Made by a program: the position numbers and the translations under genes
Source of the DNA: Bacteroidia bacterium
GTDB lineage: Bacteria; Bacteroidota; Bacteroidia; Bacteroidales; Bacteroidaceae
Assembly (NCBI GenBank): GCA_009929715.1
Contig: RZZX01000002.1
Location: forward strand, 1 to 64,000
Reading direction: 5' to 3'
Length of the DNA stretch: 64,000 bases
Shown here: piece after piece, positions 1-34,648 of the stretch
How the letters are laid out: every line of letters begins with the position of its first letter
How positions within the stretch are numbered: the stretch's first letter is position 1
The notes under the pieces: generated by a model
The model's input: only the letters and a program-made list of their open reading frames with translations
Database searches by the model: none
Told to the model about the DNA's origin: nothing

Positions 1-124
1 AGGTGAATCTTGGAACATATCCAAACCTTGAGAATGATATTCATTCTCAAGGGGTTGGATTTAGGAAATATTAATTAGTTGCGGATTTAAGGTTTTATTA
101 AAGAATGCTCATGAAACACTGCCT

Positions 125-1192
125 TTGACAGCTGCTGTTAAACGAGTAGCTGTGGTTGGTCCCTTAGCCGATGCACCTTACGAACAATTGGGCACATGGG
201 TCTTCGATGGTGACAAGAACTATAGTCAGACTCCGTTGGCTGCCATTAAAGCCTTGGTAGGCAAAGATATTGAGGTGATTTATGAGCCCGGACTGACTTT
301 TAGTCGAGATAAGAACATGGCAGGAGTAGCCAAAGCTGTTCAAGCTGCTTCACGGGCGGATGTGGTGTTGGCTTTTGTTGGTGAAGAGTCTATTTTATCG
401 GGTGAAGCACACTGTCTGACCGATTTGAATTTGCAAGGAACCCAACGAGAGCTTATTGCGTCATTAGCTAAAAGTGGCAAGCCACTGGTTACGGTCGTTA
501 TGGCCGGTCGCCCGTTGACTATTGGTACTGAGGTTGCTGCCTCTTCGGCAGTGCTGTATGCCTTCCATCCCGGTACGATGGCCGGACCTGCTTTAGCCGA
601 TTTACTTTGGGGGCAAGCCGTACCTAGTGGAAAAACCCCAATAACCTTCCCTAAGACAGTGGGACAAGTTCCTATTTACTACTCCCATCATAATACCGGT
701 CGGCCGGCTAATGGAGAAGAAGTTCTGCTGAATGATATTCCAGTTGAAGCGGGGCAAACCTCTTTAGGGTGTCGGTCGTTCTATTTGGATGCCGGTGTAG
801 AACCTCTCTATCCTTTCGGATACGGTTTATCGTACGCCACCTTTAAATACAGTCAGCCGACGTTATCGTCCAAGACATTAAAGAAAGACGATGTTTTGAC
901 CGTCACTTGCGATTTGGAAAACATCGGTCGATATCAAGGAACCGAAGTGGTACAACTTTACGTGCGTGATAAGGTCGGTTCTATTGCCCGTCCCGTGAAA
1001 GAACTCAAACGGTTTATGCGTGTAACATTGAAACCAGGCGAGAAGAAAAAGGTTCTTTTCGAACTACCGGTCGGTGAACTAGCCTTCTGGGGTATTGATA
1101 AAGTCAAGACTTTAGAATCCGGCGATTTCTCACTTTGGGTAGCTACGGATAGTCAATCGGGTGAACCTTGTGACTTTAGCTTAGTAGATTGA
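125..1192 (+). CDS. C-terminal part of a glycoside hydrolase family 3 beta-glucosidase (GH3 C-terminal plus fibronectin-III-like domains), 5'-truncated, possible pseudogene
   Basis: VAVVGPLAD, GEEAxLSGEAHxRTDLxL-like and YPFGYGLSYATFKYS motifs; GH3-like reading (VLLKNAHETLPL) extends to about 92 but meets an in-frame TAG at 62-64. Confidence 0.85.
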   Translation: MTAAVKRVAVVGPLADAPYEQLGTWVFDGDKNYSQTPLAAIKALVGKDIEVIYEPGLTFSRDKNMAGVAKAVQAASRADVVLAFVGEESILSGEAHCLTDLNLQGTQRELIASLAKSGKPLVTVVMAGRPLTIGTEVAASSAVLYAFHPGTMAGPALADLLWGQAVPSGKTPITFPKTVGQVPIYYSHHNTGRPANGEEVLLNDIPVEAGQTSLGCRSFYLDAGVEPLYPFGYGLSYATFKYSQPTLSSKTLKKDDVLTVTCDLENIGRYQGTEVVQLYVRDKVGSIARPVKELKRFMRVTLKPGEKKKVLFELPVGELAFWGIDKVKTLESGDFSLWVATDSQSGEPCDFSLVD

Positions 1193-1375
1193 TGTTTGTT
1201 TTCAGGTAATTTTGTCCTGAGTTGGATCGACTATTGGTCCGATTCAGGACATTTTAATGGTATAAGGGGCGTCGTCAATAGATTGATTACAATCTTGTCG
1301 ACTAGATTTTCTTTATGCCTTTTTTTCTATTTCCCCTTTTCATTCCAAAGAAAACCTTACTTTTGTGTCATTAAA

Positions 1376-2320
1376 ATGCGATTACGGAACATTGATTTAT
1401 TAAAAGGGCTACTTATCATTTTAGTGGTGATAGGGCATGTCATTCGTGAAGATATGAGTCACTCTATCTTCCGCACTCTCATCTACAGTTTCCACATGCC
1501 AGTTTTCATTGCAATAAGCGGTTATCTCTTTCATGCTGAGCGTTGGGAAACCGTTGGAAAACTCGTTCAGAAATATACCGCCCGACTGATGCTCCCTTGG
1601 GTCATTGCTGTGGCAGTCTATTACTGGCTTATTCACTTCCATCAGATAGAAACACTTGGGTTGGGCGGCTTGCTCCAAGCCTACACCCATCCTTACTATC
1701 ATCTATGGTTTGTTCCAGCTTTTTTGAGTTGGGTTTTGATCACTTGGTTTTTGAAACGCCTAGGTCTCAGTACCAAACAGCTACTTTTATGCGGAGGCAG
1801 TATAACGCTGATTAGTATTATTATACAGCAGTTGTCTTTATTGCCCGATAAAAGTTGGGAACAGACCTTGTTTTATACCTTCCGTCCCTATTTTTACTTT
1901 TATTTTGTCCTAGGAATCAGCTATCAGGAAAAAAAACGATTGAAACCACGGTGGGTAGACTATTTATATCCGACGCTCTGTCTATTGAGCCTTATCTATC
2001 TTTATTACGTGCCCTATCCACTTCTTCAGACAGTGATCAGCCTTGTGTTTTGCCTGACGCTTATTCATTTACTATTTAAGTTGGCCGTGAACCAAACTCT
2101 CCCTTGCTGCCGAGGAATAGAATGGATTGGAAGCCACTCGTTTGCCTTTTATCTGTGGCATGTTATTCCGGTGACTCTTTGCCTGCCAGTTATCAGCAAG
2201 GCTTATCTACTTTTCTATTATTTCACCGTCACGATACTGGAACTCCTACTTATACCGATCTATAAGATCCTGCTGACTGTTAGTCCTTTCCGTCGATACC
2301 TTTTCGGTATTCAAAAATAA
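1376..2320 (+). CDS. Acyltransferase family 3 (fucose 4-O-acetylase-like) membrane protein
   Basis: MRLRNIDLLKGLLIILVVIGH...SFHMPVFIAISGYLF typical of acyltransferase 3; ATG at 1376 preferred over the ORF-track start because a -7 box lies just upstream. Confidence 0.85.
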   Translation: MRLRNIDLLKGLLIILVVIGHVIREDMSHSIFRTLIYSFHMPVFIAISGYLFHAERWETVGKLVQKYTARLMLPWVIAVAVYYWLIHFHQIETLGLGGLLQAYTHPYYHLWFVPAFLSWVLITWFLKRLGLSTKQLLLCGGSITLISIIIQQLSLLPDKSWEQTLFYTFRPYFYFYFVLGISYQEKKRLKPRWVDYLYPTLCLLSLIYLYYVPYPLLQTVISLVFCLTLIHLLFKLAVNQTLPCCRGIEWIGSHSFAFYLWHVIPVTLCLPVISKAYLLFYYFTVTILELLLIPIYKILLTVSPFRRYLFGIQK

Positions 2321-3117
2321 GCGTATAATGTCTCCGCAAACCCCTCGAAAGAATCAAAACGATCACCTATAAGATGAACTGTTAACCCTAATTTAGACGC
2401 ACACCCAGCGGTGTATGGACCTAAACAAGCGAGGGTGAAATCTGTAGGAAATTTAAAACTCGGTTCCACTTGCTGTATAGCATCCATCAAACTCTGCACT
2501 TCGCCACCACTTGTGAACGCAATGCCATTGATTCGGCCGTTTTTGATTTCTGTTATAATCGTTCTGATGGTTGAATCCAGGCAACTATAAGTGGTGTAAG
2601 CCGAAATGCGATCTGTTATCAGGCCAATCGTTTGTAGTGCGACCAATAACTGTGGTACAGTTGGAGGTTCTTCCATTCCGATAACCTCAGGTGCAAGTAC
2701 TCCTATGCGCTGTCCTTTACACCCACCGTTCTCTGATAGCCAACGGACAACTCCCATGGGGCTTGGCTCGACCGGAATAAAAGCCGGCTCGGTGTGCAGA
2801 CGCTCCCTCATGTAAGAAATATCAGCTCCAACGGCACACATCTTAACCTGTTTAGGTAGACTTTTTTTGTTTTGTTTGAGACTCTCCCACAGAGCATCTA
2901 TTGCTTTTCGGCTTGAAAGTAGTAGGTAATCATAGCACTCTAAATGCTCGATTAGTCTTTGCATATCTATATGCTGCGGCGATAATTCATGAGCTATTGC
3001 CGGTATATAGAGCACCTCTATGGAAGTTTTAGTCTTTCCATTAGCCTGTTGCATCGCTTTTTCAAATCGCTCTGCATAGCCTTGAGGCGTCGTAACTAAC
3101 AGTGTAATATTCCTCAT
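2311..3117 (-). CDS. hemD: Uroporphyrinogen-III synthase
   Basis: HemD-like sequence (LLLSSRKAIDAL, IAFTSGGEVQSL) next to hemG and hemN. Confidence 0.8.
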   Translation of the reverse strand: MRNITLLVTTPQGYAERFEKAMQQANGKTKTSIEVLYIPAIAHELSPQHIDMQRLIEHLECYDYLLLSSRKAIDALWESLKQNKKSLPKQVKMCAVGADISYMRERLHTEPAFIPVEPSPMGVVRWLSENGGCKGQRIGVLAPEVIGMEEPPTVPQLLVALQTIGLITDRISAYTTYSCLDSTIRTIITEIKNGRINGIAFTSGGEVQSLMDAIQQVEPSFKFPTDFTLACLGPYTAGCASKLGLTVHLIGDRFDSFEGFAETLYAYF

Positions 3118-3126
3118 AAGTTGTCT

Positions 3127-4521
3127 TTATAGTTCCAGCCCGATGTGTGTGCCTTGTTTGATGCGATCGGCCATACCGATACCATCTCGGATATTGCCTG
3201 CAAGAATCAAGCCCGGGTAACTTTGTTGGATACGCTCGATCGCCTCTAGCCGCTCACCACTCCCCATCTCATACTGCGGAATGGCCTTTTCATGGCGGAA
3301 GATACGAATCAAATCAGGCTCTTTCTGCTCGGGATAATGTAAAAGTTCGGTTAAGTTGTGCCGCATCAGTTTACTCAGCGTCTCATCACTCTGCTCTACT
3401 AATTCCGGGCGACGAACACCGCCTAAGAAACAAGCATGCAAGGCTCCGTCTTTTGGTGCACGATCACTGAAACAGGCCGATGGAAAAAGAATCCCCAAGG
3501 CTTGTTTATGCTCGCACGAGGGAATAAGCCCTCCAAAAGCATTGTACTCTATCCCATCGGTCGAACGGACTCCAACAGCTATTTGAACCACCGGCGCATA
3601 GGTCAGGTTGCTTATCAGGTTCATCTCTTCAGGAGCAACAAAAGGCAAGAGAGTTGGTAAGGCATACGCCCTAATGGTGGTGACCACCTTCTGGCAACAG
3701 ATCTGTTCCTCTTCGCCTTCTCGATTCGTATAGGTAACCTGGAAACCTTCTTCTAATGGAGTAACCCGAACACTCGAAGCATTCAGTGTGATACGTTCAT
3801 CCCCGATGCGGTGACACAGCCCCTTGATCAGCTCTTCCAATCCCCCTTTAACCGAAAAAACCTGTTTGGTAGCTAAGCGGTCGCGCTCACTTTTCGGCTC
3901 TTTAGCTTTGGCGATTGCCCCTTTGATGAAACTACCATGTTCTTGTTCCAACCGGTAAAGTTTGGGTAAAGCATATCGGGTGACCAGCGTTAGCGGGTTT
4001 CCGGCATAAACCCCCGATAAGAAAGGGTCGACGGCATAGTTTAGGAAAGACTTTCCTAGACGCCGACGTGCCAAAGCCCCCACACTCTCGTTGGGGTCTT
4101 TTCCTTTTGCCCGAAAAGGCTCACCAAGAATGCGGAACTTATCAGGCCAACTGAATAGGGGTGTAAAGAGTGCACTCATTAGCCCTGATGGTAGGGCATG
4201 AAACCGCTTGCCTTTCCAAATAAGTCGTTTTTTGGCACTTTCTAGAGCCGTTTCGAGTGTACATTCGTCCTTTAGCGCCTCGAATAGTTCGGCCACTTCG
4301 GGGTGAGAGATCACACCGGTATTGGGGCCACTTTCAAAGGTAAATCCATGTTCATGAAACGATCGGATCTGTCCGCCTGCTCGATCCTGACTCTCCAAAA
4401 CTTCTATATCTTTACCTTTTTGGCAGGCGTAAAAGGCAGTGGTGAGGCCTGTTAACCCCGCACCAATAATAACGACCTCGCGTTGGCGACTCTGCTGTTT
4501 GGTTCTATTCTTATTCTCCAT
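3127..4521 (-). CDS. hemG: Protoporphyrinogen oxidase
   Basis: FAD-binding GAGLTGLTTAFYACQKGKDIEVLESQDRAGGQIRS; HemY/HemG-type length and C-terminus. Confidence 0.9.
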   Translation of the reverse strand: MENKNRTKQQSRQREVVIIGAGLTGLTTAFYACQKGKDIEVLESQDRAGGQIRSFHEHGFTFESGPNTGVISHPEVAELFEALKDECTLETALESAKKRLIWKGKRFHALPSGLMSALFTPLFSWPDKFRILGEPFRAKGKDPNESVGALARRRLGKSFLNYAVDPFLSGVYAGNPLTLVTRYALPKLYRLEQEHGSFIKGAIAKAKEPKSERDRLATKQVFSVKGGLEELIKGLCHRIGDERITLNASSVRVTPLEEGFQVTYTNREGEEEQICCQKVVTTIRAYALPTLLPFVAPEEMNLISNLTYAPVVQIAVGVRSTDGIEYNAFGGLIPSCEHKQALGILFPSACFSDRAPKDGALHACFLGGVRRPELVEQSDETLSKLMRHNLTELLHYPEQKEPDLIRIFRHEKAIPQYEMGSGERLEAIERIQQSYPGLILAGNIRDGIGMADRIKQGTHIGLEL

Positions 4522-4560
4522 GTCTGTTTTGATTTGTTACAGGGTTGTTTGACGCAAACC

Positions 4561-5931
4561 TTAAATCGGTTTCGAGAAACTTTTACCATTATGCAACATC
4601 AATTTATCGAGTGAAGCAGCAATGTTACGCACAAAAGGTGATCCCTCTTCAGTCATCTGAATCGTGTTCTCGTTGAAACGAATCAATCCATCGCCCGCAA
4701 ACTCTTCTAATTTCTCTTGATTGAATGCTGTGGCATGCTTTAGCTCCTCTACCGAAGTCTGAAGATGCGTAGCCAACTCCGCCCAATCGATGCTGTAATT
4801 ACACATTAAACTTTCAATCACCTCGCGCGTGAGCTGTTCCTCACGATTGAGCGTATAACCTTTGGCAATAGGCAGCCGATCTTCCTCTACGCTCTTCATA
4901 TAGCTCTCTATCTCTTTCGTATTCTGTGCATACGCCGAATGAAGCTGACTGATTCCTGTTACCCCAAAAGCATACACTTGAGCCGTGGTACGTCTCGTAC
5001 AATAGCCTTGGAAGTTACGGTGCAACTTTTTAGTTTGTAGAGCGATGTTCAGCTCATCGTCCGGTCGTACAAAATGATCCATCCCGATAGATTGATAGCC
5101 TGCTTGGTGAAGCAAAGCCGAAGCCTCACTAAACAAGTTGCTTTTCAACGCACTGTCCGGCAACCCGGCCTTTTCGAGTATCAATTGTCGCTTATTAACC
5201 CAAGGCACATGGGCATAACTGAATGTCACCAAACGGTCTGGAGCCAATGCGATCGCCTTGCGGATACTCTCCGAAAAACTCTCTACCGTTTGCAACGGCA
5301 AGCCATAGAGCAAATCCATGTTGATCTTAGCCTGATGCTGTCGTAGAATCTCAAAAATCTTCTCCAAGGGTAGGAGAGAAGGGCGTCGGTTAACCACTTT
5401 CAGTACTTCCGCATTGAAATCCTGTACCCCTAGGCTATACCGATTAAACCCACACTGGGTGAGTCCATACCAATCCTCTTCCGTAAGGTATCCCGGATGG
5501 CACTCAATAGCAATCTCCGGTTGGTCGATGGTTTGAAACCCTTCCAACAAGTGAGCGTTCAACTCCCTCAAAGCACTCACTGGCAGAGAAGTTGGGCTAC
5601 CACCCCCATAATGGATTTGTGCGACTAAACGGTCACGCTTCAAGAGCGGCAACACCAAATCTATTTCCCGATGCAGCGCTTTTACATACCGAGTCACCAC
5701 CTCCGGTCGCATCATTGGGAACGAGTTACATCCGCAGTAATGACACAGATGCTTGCAAAATGGGATATGAAGGTAAAAAGAGATGCGGTTGTCCGGCGCT
5801 TCGTTCGAGTCCGTTACCGCTTTTCGGTAAGCCTCTTCCGAGTACGCTTCAAAGTAATTGGCTGGTGGATAGCTGGTATAGCGAGGCACCGGAATATTAT
5901 ATTTCTGAATTAATGTAGCATTCATAAGCAC
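4561..5931 (-). CDS. hemN: Oxygen-independent coproporphyrinogen III dehydrogenase (radical SAM)
   Basis: PRYTSYPPA N-terminus and CKHLCHYCGCN radical SAM motif. Confidence 0.93.
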   Translation of the reverse strand: MLMNATLIQKYNIPVPRYTSYPPANYFEAYSEEAYRKAVTDSNEAPDNRISFYLHIPFCKHLCHYCGCNSFPMMRPEVVTRYVKALHREIDLVLPLLKRDRLVAQIHYGGGSPTSLPVSALRELNAHLLEGFQTIDQPEIAIECHPGYLTEEDWYGLTQCGFNRYSLGVQDFNAEVLKVVNRRPSLLPLEKIFEILRQHQAKINMDLLYGLPLQTVESFSESIRKAIALAPDRLVTFSYAHVPWVNKRQLILEKAGLPDSALKSNLFSEASALLHQAGYQSIGMDHFVRPDDELNIALQTKKLHRNFQGYCTRRTTAQVYAFGVTGISQLHSAYAQNTKEIESYMKSVEEDRLPIAKGYTLNREEQLTREVIESLMCNYSIDWAELATHLQTSVEELKHATAFNQEKLEEFAGDGLIRFNENTIQMTEEGSPFVRNIAASLDKLMLHNGKSFSKPI

Positions 5932-5940
5932 AGATAAAAT

Positions 5941-7173
5941 TTAAATGTCCGCCTTCTTCCGAAAGACAGTCAAGATATATAAAAAAGAGATACAAGCTAA
6001 AACGGCCTCAAAGAAAAACAACCCCTCATAACCCAGATGATCGGCTATACATCCACTGATAACCGCTATCAGCAATCCACTCAGGTGAGTAATAACCGTC
6101 TGTATGGTAAAGTCCGTTCCCTCTTTGCCCGGGCGCACACAATCCATGGCCGTGGTATAAACCACGATGGTAGCCATACCGTAACTGCTCCAAAGCAAGA
6201 TGATACCGATATAGATCAATAGCGTGGTAGGCTGCGTGTAAGAGAGCGCCACGAAATAAAACGTGGTGAGTACGATAAAGAGCGCAAAGAGTAGGCGAGA
6301 AGATTCCCGTCCAATTCGTCTGACGATAAAGCCCGCTAAAAAGGAGGCCATAAAAGCGGCTGCCGTACCGACCACTCCGCTCATGATCCCGATCTCCTTC
6401 ATGGAATACCCCAGATCCACCAAGTAAGGACGAAGCACAGAAAGCGTGCCGATGATGCTCGAATAATAGAGCACCAAAAAGCCGATCTGTTTCCAAATGT
6501 TTCGGCGCGTAAAGAACCAGATAAAATCTGTCAGTTTAGCCCGATGGCGTTCCTCTTTCTTTTCGATGCGAATGGTCTTATTTAGGAGCAGGGGGATCAA
6601 CGCAATCAGTACAAAGATGCCTAACCCCGGGGTAACCCGTTGCCAACCATGGTGGTCGAGAGCCAAAAGCAGTACACCACCACCGATCAATGTTCCGCCG
6701 AAGCTTCCCATCGACTGCATGCTGTTGATCAGACTCTTATCTTTCCGGTTGAATGAGAGCACTGCCAGCGCATCTGTGGCAATATCTTGCGTAGCCGAAG
6801 CCGTTAACGCTAATACAATAAGCCCGATAATCAGGTAAAAATGGTCACTGATTCGGAAGAATCCCACCGATAAAATGAGCAAAGCATAAATCAGTTCAAA
6901 CGCAATGATGCACCGTTTATAACCCGTATACGTGTTGCAATACCGATCCACCATGGGCGACCATAAGAACTTTAAGATCCACGGCAACTTGATAATTTGC
7001 AATAACGCAATGGCGGCAAGCGAGTAATTCTCTTGCCGCATCACCACCTGTATAGAGGTTGAGAAAAAACTCATCGGAATAGCCTGAGCGATGTAGAGAA
7101 AGAAAAAAGTCCCTAGATTCAGTGTTTTAGCCGATGGATAAAAAGACGGTTGTTTCGTGTTCAGTTCAGTCAT
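5941..7173 (-). CDS. MFS transporter, AmpG/PAT-like
   Basis: 12-TM MFS protein; LPWILKFLWSPMVDRY and QDIATDALAV are AmpG-like motifs. Confidence 0.8.
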   Translation of the reverse strand: MTELNTKQPSFYPSAKTLNLGTFFFLYIAQAIPMSFFSTSIQVVMRQENYSLAAIALLQIIKLPWILKFLWSPMVDRYCNTYTGYKRCIIAFELIYALLILSVGFFRISDHFYLIIGLIVLALTASATQDIATDALAVLSFNRKDKSLINSMQSMGSFGGTLIGGGVLLLALDHHGWQRVTPGLGIFVLIALIPLLLNKTIRIEKKEERHRAKLTDFIWFFTRRNIWKQIGFLVLYYSSIIGTLSVLRPYLVDLGYSMKEIGIMSGVVGTAAAFMASFLAGFIVRRIGRESSRLLFALFIVLTTFYFVALSYTQPTTLLIYIGIILLWSSYGMATIVVYTTAMDCVRPGKEGTDFTIQTVITHLSGLLIAVISGCIADHLGYEGLFFFEAVLACISFLYILTVFRKKADI

Positions 7174-32242: not shown

Positions 32243-32848
32243 ATGAGTGAAGAAGATAGTTATAAAACCATTGCCGAACCGGCTGAAGCCATTTATACGG
32301 AGAAGCGGAGTAAGTTTTTGGCTTTTGCTTTGCCTGTACGCTCTGTCGAGGAGATTAAGGGACACTTGGATACTTTTCAGAAGAAGTATTACGATGCTCG
32401 TCACGTTTGTTATGCTTATATGCTTGGAGCCGAGCGAACAGATTTTCGGGCAAATGATAATGGAGAGCCTTCTGGAACAGCCGGACGTCCTATTTTGGGT
32501 CAGATTAACTCGAATGAGCTAACGGATATTTTGGTCATTGTGGTGCGTTATTTTGGTGGAATCAAATTAGGAACGAGTGGTTTGATTGTAGCCTATAAAG
32601 CAGCAGCGGCTGAAGCACTTGCTGCTGCTCAAGTCATAGAGAAGACTGTAGATGATGAACTCTCTATCATGTTTGAATACCCTTTTATGAACGATGTTAT
32701 GCGCATCGTCAAAGAGGAAGAACCTGAAATAGTCTCTCAATCGTATGAGACGAATTGCTGCATGACTTTACGGATTCGGCGGATGCTTATGCCTAAACTT
32801 CGTGCACGTTTAGAGAAGGTAGAGACTATTCAGTTTGTAGAAGATTAA
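32243..32848 (+). CDS. YigZ/IMPACT family protein
   Basis: KRSKFLAFA, DNGEPSGTAGRPILGQI, VVRYFGGIKLGTSGLIVAY; start corrected to 32243. Confidence 0.93.
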   Translation: MSEEDSYKTIAEPAEAIYTEKRSKFLAFALPVRSVEEIKGHLDTFQKKYYDARHVCYAYMLGAERTDFRANDNGEPSGTAGRPILGQINSNELTDILVIVVRYFGGIKLGTSGLIVAYKAAAAEALAAAQVIEKTVDDELSIMFEYPFMNDVMRIVKEEEPEIVSQSYETNCCMTLRIRRMLMPKLRARLEKVETIQFVED

Positions 32849-32876: not shown

Positions 32877-33962
32877 ATGGCATTTGAAGCTACTAAAAGA
32901 GAATGGAGTGAAATTTATTGCTTTTTTCGTTTGTTGTCCGAGGGGAGAGTGGTTATGGGAACCACCAAAGGAGGAAAAGGTGAGAGCTATCGACCGATAG
33001 CGATGATTCAACGGGAGGAACATGACGGAACTCGTTGCTATTATATTGAAGAGGATTCTATCCGCATTGAAGGAGAGCAAATCAGCAAACAAGTTTTACG
33101 TGAAGATTTTGCTGTGGTAGCCGATTTGATTCTGGAAGCTGTTAAAAACTCTTCAGAATATGAGGTGACTTCACCGGAGGCTGTAGAGGCTTTCTTGGAT
33201 GAGATTGCTATTTTTGATTTGGAAGCTAAAACAACTGATCGAACAGACTTTTCGGTTGCTTTTTATCATTCTCAAGCACCGCTTCAAGGACTTTGTGTCC
33301 GGTCGCGTTTGGCTGCTATGAATCCACTGCTTGATGGTGGTCGTGCAGCTAATATTAAGTTGGAACAGACTGGAGTGAAGTTTGCTGTACCCACAGTGAA
33401 TAAAGTTAATGCTTTGCCGGAGTCGGCCGAAGAGGTTGCTGAACGTATGTTGATGATCGAACGTTTGGGTGGCGTTTTGAAATATTCGGATGTAGCCGAC
33501 CGTGTGTTTCGCTCTAATCTATTGATGATTGATTTACATTTTCCTCGTCTGCTGACGGAGATGGTGCGTACGATGCACTTAGATGGTCTTTCGCGTGTCA
33601 GTGAGCTGACTGAATTGATGAAGCAGGTTAATCCTTTAAAGATCAAAGATGAGCTAATAACAAAACATGGTTATTATGAGTTTAAGATGAAGCAGTTTCT
33701 GATGGCATTGGCTTTAGGAATGCGTCCTGCTAAAATCTATAATGGCACTGATTCCGCTATCACTGGGCTGTTGTTGGTCGATGGGAGTGGGGATGTCTAT
33801 TGCTACCATGTTTCTGAAAGAGAGGTCTTTGAGAATTTCTTATATCTAAATACGCGTTTTGAAAAAGGGTCTGTCGATAAAGATAAGTATGGCTTTTTGG
33901 AAAGAGAGAACGGCGTGTATTATTTTAAATTGAATATTAAAATCGGGCTACTAAAGCGCTAA
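32877..33962 (+). CDS. HpaII-family restriction endonuclease-like protein
   Basis: Recognised from memory as the RE_HpaII-annotated family (MAFEATKREWSEIYCFFRLL...IAMIQREEHDGTR..., about 360 aa). Confidence 0.65.
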   Translation: MAFEATKREWSEIYCFFRLLSEGRVVMGTTKGGKGESYRPIAMIQREEHDGTRCYYIEEDSIRIEGEQISKQVLREDFAVVADLILEAVKNSSEYEVTSPEAVEAFLDEIAIFDLEAKTTDRTDFSVAFYHSQAPLQGLCVRSRLAAMNPLLDGGRAANIKLEQTGVKFAVPTVNKVNALPESAEEVAERMLMIERLGGVLKYSDVADRVFRSNLLMIDLHFPRLLTEMVRTMHLDGLSRVSELTELMKQVNPLKIKDELITKHGYYEFKMKQFLMALALGMRPAKIYNGTDSAITGLLLVDGSGDVYCYHVSEREVFENFLYLNTRFEKGSVDKDKYGFLERENGVYYFKLNIKIGLLKR

Positions 33963-33975
33963 ATACTGCTGGATT

Positions 33976-34539
33976 ATGACTGAATTGCTACATCTAATTA
34001 AATCGCGTCGGAGTGTGCGGAAATATACCGGGCAACAAATTAGTGAGAAGGATTTATTGGCTATTCTTGAAGCAGCAACACAAGCTCCTAGTGGTATGAA
34101 TTATCAGACGTGGCATTTTACTGCGATTCAGAATCCGGATATTTTGGTGGAACTCAATAATCGGATTAAACAAGCGTTTGGACGAACGGATCAGCCGCAA
34201 CTTCAGGAACGTTCGAAAAGTACAACTTATTGTTGTTACTACCATGCACCAACGTTGGTGATTGTGTCGAATGAGCCGACGCAATGGTGGGCAGGGATGG
34301 ATTGTGCTTGTGCCATCGAAAACATGTTTTTGGCTGCACAGGCATTAGGTTTGGGGTCTTGCTGGGTCAATCAGCTTGGTACCACGCATCAAGATCCCGA
34401 AGTTAGAGCCTTGCTCAATTCGCTTGGAGTTCCTCCCAGTCATCATGTTTATGGCTGTGTAGCATTGGGTTATCCGGACTTGTCTGTTCCTATGAAAGAA
34501 AAGGCGTTGAACCCTAACACTTATACCATTATCAAATAA
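33976..34539 (+). CDS. Nitroreductase family protein
   Basis: IKSRRSVRKYTGQQIS, AATQAPSGMNYQTWHF, AIENMFLAAQALGLGSCW. Confidence 0.95.
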   Translation: MTELLHLIKSRRSVRKYTGQQISEKDLLAILEAATQAPSGMNYQTWHFTAIQNPDILVELNNRIKQAFGRTDQPQLQERSKSTTYCCYYHAPTLVIVSNEPTQWWAGMDCACAIENMFLAAQALGLGSCWVNQLGTTHQDPEVRALLNSLGVPPSHHVYGCVALGYPDLSVPMKEKALNPNTYTIIK

Positions 34540-34605: not shown

Positions 34606-34648
34606 GTTATGAATGTCAAACACGTTTTTAAGTCAGCGTGTCCTTCAT

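What the first reader, a model, noticed from the sequence alone, without database searches (positions are those of the whole stretch)
32877..33962. HpaII-like endonuclease gene with no methyltransferase beside it
The gene sits between YigZ and nitroreductase genes, with no C5 methyltransferase visible anywhere in the window. CCGG sites are common here (for example 2772 and 2783). In DRTDFSVAFYHSQAPLQGLCVRSRL, where I would expect a catalytic lysine in a PD-(D/E)XK-type core, there is an arginine, though my memory of the family motif is uncertain. A domesticated or repurposed nuclease fold, or a divergent defence protein, is plausible.
Basis: partly seen in the sequence, partly recalled or inferred. 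Interest (0 to 1): 0.6.

Follow-up and report, generated by a model that had tools for sequence, protein, structure and literature searches.

The report
Solitary HpaII-like protein, rebuilt active site
Most gut Bacteroides species carry a long-conserved relative of the DNA-cutting enzyme HpaII that has lost its protective methylase partner and the lysine every paired HpaII relative keeps, and has gained a new invariant motif beside it, so it has probably taken on a new, still unknown, cellular job.

Summary
The one C5 methyltransferase found in its genome is only 26-37% identical to HpaII-linked ones and is followed by a different type II endonuclease. The gene belongs to a solitary clade found here only in Bacteroidaceae (60 rows, 100/100 support), separate from methyltransferase-linked HpaII enzymes. 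All 20 R-M-type sequences have the GFSIKS lysine; none of 62 solitary ones does (R49, Y5, Q5, C, F, L). The candidate acidic residues (E12, D124) stay, and a new DGGRxANxK motif is fixed (R156 and K161 in 62/62, K161 in 0/20 R-M). The gene is in 80 of 90 good Bacteroides genomes, mostly between yigZ and nitroreductase/gcvP, under purifying selection (median dN/dS 0.07). CCGG is not depleted. Ershova et al. 2012 (PMC3488263) had already noted solitary HpaII-like proteins in Bacteroides, one (BthVORF1149P) without activity per REBASE, and suggested a changed function. I found no published account of the lysine loss or the new motif in the papers held. Best reading: a repurposed, non-restricting derivative. 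Whether it only binds DNA or cuts another substrate is open.

The parts
32877..33962 (+). Solitary HpaII-like gene, 361 aa
   Evidence: PF09561 434.6 bits over positions 1-359/359; AlphaFold mean pLDDT 94.4, pTM 0.91
32901..32912 (+). E9..E12 in helix 1: acidic residues kept in both clades
   Evidence: E12: 19/19 R-M rows with a residue, 61/62 solitary
33246..33248 (+). D124, kept acidic residue (candidate PD-(D/E)XK aspartate) at the start of strand 125-129
   Evidence: D 20/20 R-M, 59/62 solitary; strand
33288..33305 (+). Degenerate half of the motif: GLCVRS (residues 138-143) in place of GFSIKS; R142 replaces the invariant lysine, C140 the invariant serine
   Evidence: K142 20/20 in R-M, 0/62 in solitary; S140 20/20 versus variable; conservation ranks
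33333..33359 (+). New clade-specific motif DGGRAANIK (residues 153-161)
   Evidence: R156 and K161 62/62 in the solitary clade, not conserved in R-M (K161 0/20); D153 61/62 versus N 20/20
32243..32848 (+). yigZ (UPF0029/IMPACT) immediately upstream, conserved Bacteroides neighbour
   Evidence: Pfam UPF0029; synteny
33976..34539 (+). nitroreductase immediately downstream, probably co-transcribed (13-base gap, terminator-like hairpin at 34620-34641)
   Evidence: Pfam; synteny; hairpin (consensus match only)

Best explanation
This is a vertically maintained, solitary derivative of the HpaII type II endonuclease, restricted in these samples to Bacteroidaceae, that has left restriction-modification. 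Shown here: it has no partner methyltransferase beside it; the GFSIKS lysine is replaced in every solitary member; the serine two residues before it has become one of the most variable positions; the helix-1 glutamates and D124 are kept; a new invariant DGGRxANxK motif was fixed directly after the degenerate strand; the gene is under strong purifying selection. Inferred: it does not cleave host CCGG sites, and it works as a DNA-binding protein on the old HpaII scaffold whose substrate site has been rebuilt around R156 and K161. I put about 0.5 on non-cleaving binding (regulatory or DNA-protecting) and about 0.33 on a nuclease with a relocated lysine acting on another substrate. The confidence given is for the shared core: repurposed, not an R-M enzyme.
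For: Clade separation with 100/100 support and a stem of 1.56. A C5 methyltransferase lies directly upstream of 17 of 18 R-M rows in the tree, and next to none of the solitary genes (L102's solitary gene lies 7.7 kb from the methyltransferase of a separate complete pair). K142 20/20 versus 0/62; R156 and K161 62/62. Position 140 ranks 331/361 and position 142 ranks 199/361 in variability in the solitary clade, while both are invariant in R-M. Median dN/dS 0.069, maximum 0.127, over 44 pairs. Present in 80/90 good genomes of the genus. Window CCGG observed/expected 0.97. The only C5 methyltransferase found in the genome has its own different REase_II partner. REBASE reports no activity for BthVORF1149P, as cited in PMC3488263.
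Against: Loss of the lysine alone does not prove inactivity: active enzymes have E (BamHI), Q (BglII, NotI) or N (MspI) at that position (PMC4081073). The lysine loss is a single event on one branch, so it cannot be tested as a repeated association. The fold has no significant solved relative, so 'PD-(D/E)XK' rests on motif and secondary-structure order. The assembly has 437 contigs, 92% completeness and 8% contamination, so a missed methyltransferase is possible. Methylation was not measured. About 10% of good genomes in the genus lack the gene.
Confidence: 0.82

Rival explanations
1. A still-active solitary nuclease with a relocated lysine (K161) that cuts a different or modified substrate, i.e. 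a type IV-like defence or repair enzyme that needs no methyltransferase. (This is a sub-case of the repurposed reading.)
For: E12 and D124 are kept as in active enzymes while K161 and R156 become invariant. A solitary state without self-harm fits a modification-dependent target. K161 lies on the strand following the one that carries R142.
Against: Near-core distribution at a stable housekeeping locus is unlike patchy defence genes. BthVORF1149P is reported inactive, though the substrates tested are not stated.
Confidence: 0.33
2. An active HpaII endonuclease of a separated R-M system whose methyltransferase lies elsewhere in the genome.
For: Ershova et al. predicted probable cognate methyltransferases for 5 of 11 Bacteroides members. 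The window's genome has one C5 methyltransferase.
Against: That methyltransferase is 26-37% identical to HpaII-linked ones, which are mostly 54-83% identical to L078's, and has its own REase partner. Of 41 genus genomes searched, only two had a near-full-length match, at 47-51%, yet 80/90 good genomes carry the gene. The lysine is absent from the whole clade.
Confidence: 0.05
3. A decaying remnant of an R-M system with no function.
For: The lysine is lost and the methyltransferase is absent.
Against: dN/dS 0.07 and intact frames in nearly all of about 115 genus copies. By contrast, true R-M copies without a methyltransferase in view are truncated or fragmentary (L115, L096, L098). New residues have become invariant.
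Confidence: 0.02

Closest known systems
Solitary HpaII-like REs of Bacteroides (group 37 and groups 6/7 of Ershova et al. 2012, PMC3488263; includes BthVORF1149P)
   Same: Very probably the same proteins: HpaII-like, Bacteroides, no adjacent methyltransferase, suspected change of function, one reported without RE activity.
   Different: That text gives no active-site analysis, clade structure, selection or neighbourhood data; it proposed separated R-M systems for 5 of 11, which the lysine loss makes unlikely.
Methyltransferase-linked HpaII R-M systems (L077-L086 here; Acinetobacter plasmid L122; Lactococcus plasmid L123; katablepharid mitochondrial and Algibacter HpaII, PMC8099122)
   Same: Same Pfam family (not tested for the mitochondrial and Algibacter enzymes), similar length and predicted secondary-structure order; acidic residues E12 and D124.
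   Different: They have GFSIKS, an adjacent C5 methyltransferase and a patchy, sometimes plasmid-borne distribution; the katablepharid and Algibacter enzymes slow growth when expressed in E. coli.
HinP1I (PDB 2fkc, 1ynm)
   Same: Only restriction enzyme among the top 50 PDB fold hits of the R-M-type model (ranks 4 and 31).
   Different: Not significant (E 0.28, probability 0.20, TM 0.25), and not among the listed top 50 for the window protein's own model.

Membership tests
HpaII restriction endonuclease (PF09561) | Full-length match to the family profile above its cut-off | tested here: met
   434.6 bits against a cut-off of 25, profile positions 1-359 of 359
HpaII restriction endonuclease (PF09561) | Conserved S-x-K catalytic half-motif (GFSIKS) | tested here: not met
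   GLCVRS here; K 20/20 in R-M members, 0/62 in this clade
HpaII restriction endonuclease (PF09561) | Cognate C5 methyltransferase, normally adjacent | tested here: not met
   None in the window; the one C5 methyltransferase in the genome is distant in sequence and has its own endonuclease
HpaII restriction endonuclease (PF09561) | Cleavage of CCGG | not testable with these tools
   A B. thetaiotaomicron HpaII-like protein (BthVORF1149P) is reported inactive in REBASE, as cited in PMC3488263
PD-(D/E)XK nuclease superfamily | Significant structural match to a solved member | tested here: inconclusive
   No hit at E<=0.001; HinP1I at E 0.28 for the R-M model only
PD-(D/E)XK nuclease superfamily | Acidic residues and lysine of the motif | tested here: inconclusive
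   E12 and D124 present; the lysine is replaced by R

The most novel reading that the evidence does not exclude
A type II restriction endonuclease was domesticated once in the ancestry of Bacteroidaceae and rebuilt into a near-core housekeeping protein: its lysine moved or was dropped, a new DGGRxANxK site was fixed, and it now performs a conserved non-defence DNA transaction in gut Bacteroides.
Probability: 0.45. Interest if true: 0.75.

Novelty: new variant of a known kind. Interest (0 to 1): 0.55.

Why it matters
Restriction enzymes are textbook selfish or defensive genes; a clear case of one converted into a stable, near-core chromosomal gene with a rebuilt active site would be a rare example of domestication and could reveal new DNA biology in abundant human gut bacteria. 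It also warns that automatic annotation as 'HpaII family restriction endonuclease' is probably wrong for this Bacteroidaceae clade, which affects defence-system counts and predicted barriers to genetic engineering.

Tried and rejected
NCBIfam gave no match for the protein, and phmmer and profile searches of PDB found no relative. Foldseek against PDB and BFVD gave no match at E<=0.001. I looked for a conserved partner gene outside Bacteroides: the neighbours change by genus (umuC-like polymerase and an S24 peptidase, alpha-amylase/acyltransferase/kinase, chorismate synthase and others), so I rejected an obligate neighbour. Phage origin: the record MT837575.1 carries yigZ, nitroreductase and gcvP beside the gene, i.e. 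it is bacterial DNA. The B. finegoldii 'plasmid' hit looks chromosomal, as it carries serC, gcvP and rsmG. Promoter scans were uninformative (counts at chance level). Papers naming BT_1149 or BthVORF1149P: only the 2012 study was relevant.

Full report
Observation. The ORF at 32877-33962 is real, a full-length PF09561 protein, and lies between yigZ and a nitroreductase, with no methyltransferase motif in the window.

Distribution. The window's genome appears to belong to Bacteroides: the closest named relatives of the protein are in B. fragilis (78%) and B. nordii (76%). The family is present in 117/151 genomes of the genus, 80/90 when only good genomes are counted, in 114/301 of the family, and in 20/395 of the class. 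Within Bacteroides the gene usually follows yigZ and precedes a nitroreductase and an opposing gcvP. Of five good genomes without it, three (G745, G704, G712) have yigZ within about 40 bases of gcvP, with both the HpaII-like gene and the nitroreductase cleanly absent. In other genera the gene mostly sits at other loci.

Two clades. A maximum-likelihood tree of 78 proteins separates 60 solitary Bacteroidaceae rows from 18 R-M-type rows with 100/100 support. In the R-M clade 17 of 18 rows have a C5 methyltransferase directly upstream; no solitary gene has one next to it. Several genomes hold both kinds (G514, G672, G429). The R-M clade also holds plasmid genes of Acinetobacter and Lactococcus with adjacent methyltransferases, so the R-M form is taxonomically widespread and the solitary form local. 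The direction R-M to solitary is inferred from that; the root is not proven.

Active site. R-M members share GFSIKS; position 142 is K in 20/20. In the solitary clade it is R49, Y5, Q5, C1, F1, L1. The serine at 140 (20/20) becomes variable. N153 becomes D (61/62), and R156 and K161 are invariant (62/62), while K161 is absent from all R-M rows. Position 140 is among the most variable of the solitary protein (rank 331 of 361) and position 142 is middling (199), against full invariance in R-M. The acidic residues E9, E12, E48 and D124 are kept. So one half of the presumed site is released and a new motif is fixed next to it. That is what a changed function predicts and what simple decay does not.

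Selection. Among solitary pairs of 80-98.5% identity, median dN/dS is 0.069 (44 usable pairs, Nei-Gojobori). R-M-type copies with no methyltransferase in view are truncated or fragmentary (L115, L096, L098), a useful contrast.

Methyltransferase elsewhere. The window's genome holds one PF00145 match. It is 26-37% identical to the HpaII-linked enzymes, while those are mostly 54-83% identical to L078's, and the gene after it matches a different REase_II profile. A search of 41 genus genomes with an HpaII-linked methyltransferase found only two near-full-length matches, at 47-51% identity. The assembly is fragmented, so absence is not absolute.

Structure. AlphaFold gives confident models for the window protein (pLDDT 94.4) and an R-M relative (95.2) with nearly the same order of elements. 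PDB fold search gives nothing significant; HinP1I appears at E 0.28 for the R-M model. PD-(D/E)XK membership is therefore plausible but not shown.

Prior knowledge. Ershova et al. 2012 (PMC3488263) list solitary HpaII-like proteins of Bacteroides, report that BthVORF1149P has no activity according to REBASE, and say these proteins may have changed their function. A functional CCGG-specific HpaII pair is described in PMC8099122. PMC4081073 notes that the catalytic lysine is replaced in some active enzymes, so the substitution alone is not proof of inactivity. I found no description of the clade-wide lysine loss or the DGGRxANxK motif in the papers held.

Judgement. The gene is a repurposed, non-R-M derivative (0.82). 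Between a non-cleaving DNA-binding protein and a nuclease with a rebuilt site I lean to the former because of its near-core, stable-locus distribution and the reported lack of activity, but the kept acids and the invariant K161/R156 keep the latter open.

Noticed in passing
L125 (MT837575.1) 1-6605: A GenBank 'Bacteriophage sp.' record (marked UNVERIFIED) is Bacteroides-like chromosomal DNA: yigZ, HpaII-like, nitroreductase and gcvP in order.
   Followed up: partly
L121 (NZ_OY725969.1): A 125-kb 'plasmid' of B. finegoldii carries serC, gcvP and rsmG at the conserved locus, so it looks like a chromosome fragment listed as a plasmid.
   Followed up: no
L076 1381-3859 (G000:C200): The window's genome carries another type II R-M pair: a C5 methyltransferase followed by an unrelated REase_II (PDLC03508); the assembly has 8% contamination, so its origin is unsure.
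   Followed up: partly
L068, L100, L102: In some Phocaeicola-like genomes the solitary gene lies close downstream of a Y-family polymerase gene (umuC-like) and an S24 peptidase gene on the opposite strand, a possible damage-response neighbourhood.
   Followed up: partly
G788:C2:36712-37254 and G788:C38:85921-86399: The family gene is split over two contigs in this good-quality Bacteroides genome, perhaps an interrupted copy or a contig break.
   Followed up: no
L116 7804-8883; L101 5647-6720: Some HpaII R-M systems in Bacteroidaceae have a second C5 methyltransferase directly downstream of the endonuclease.
   Followed up: no
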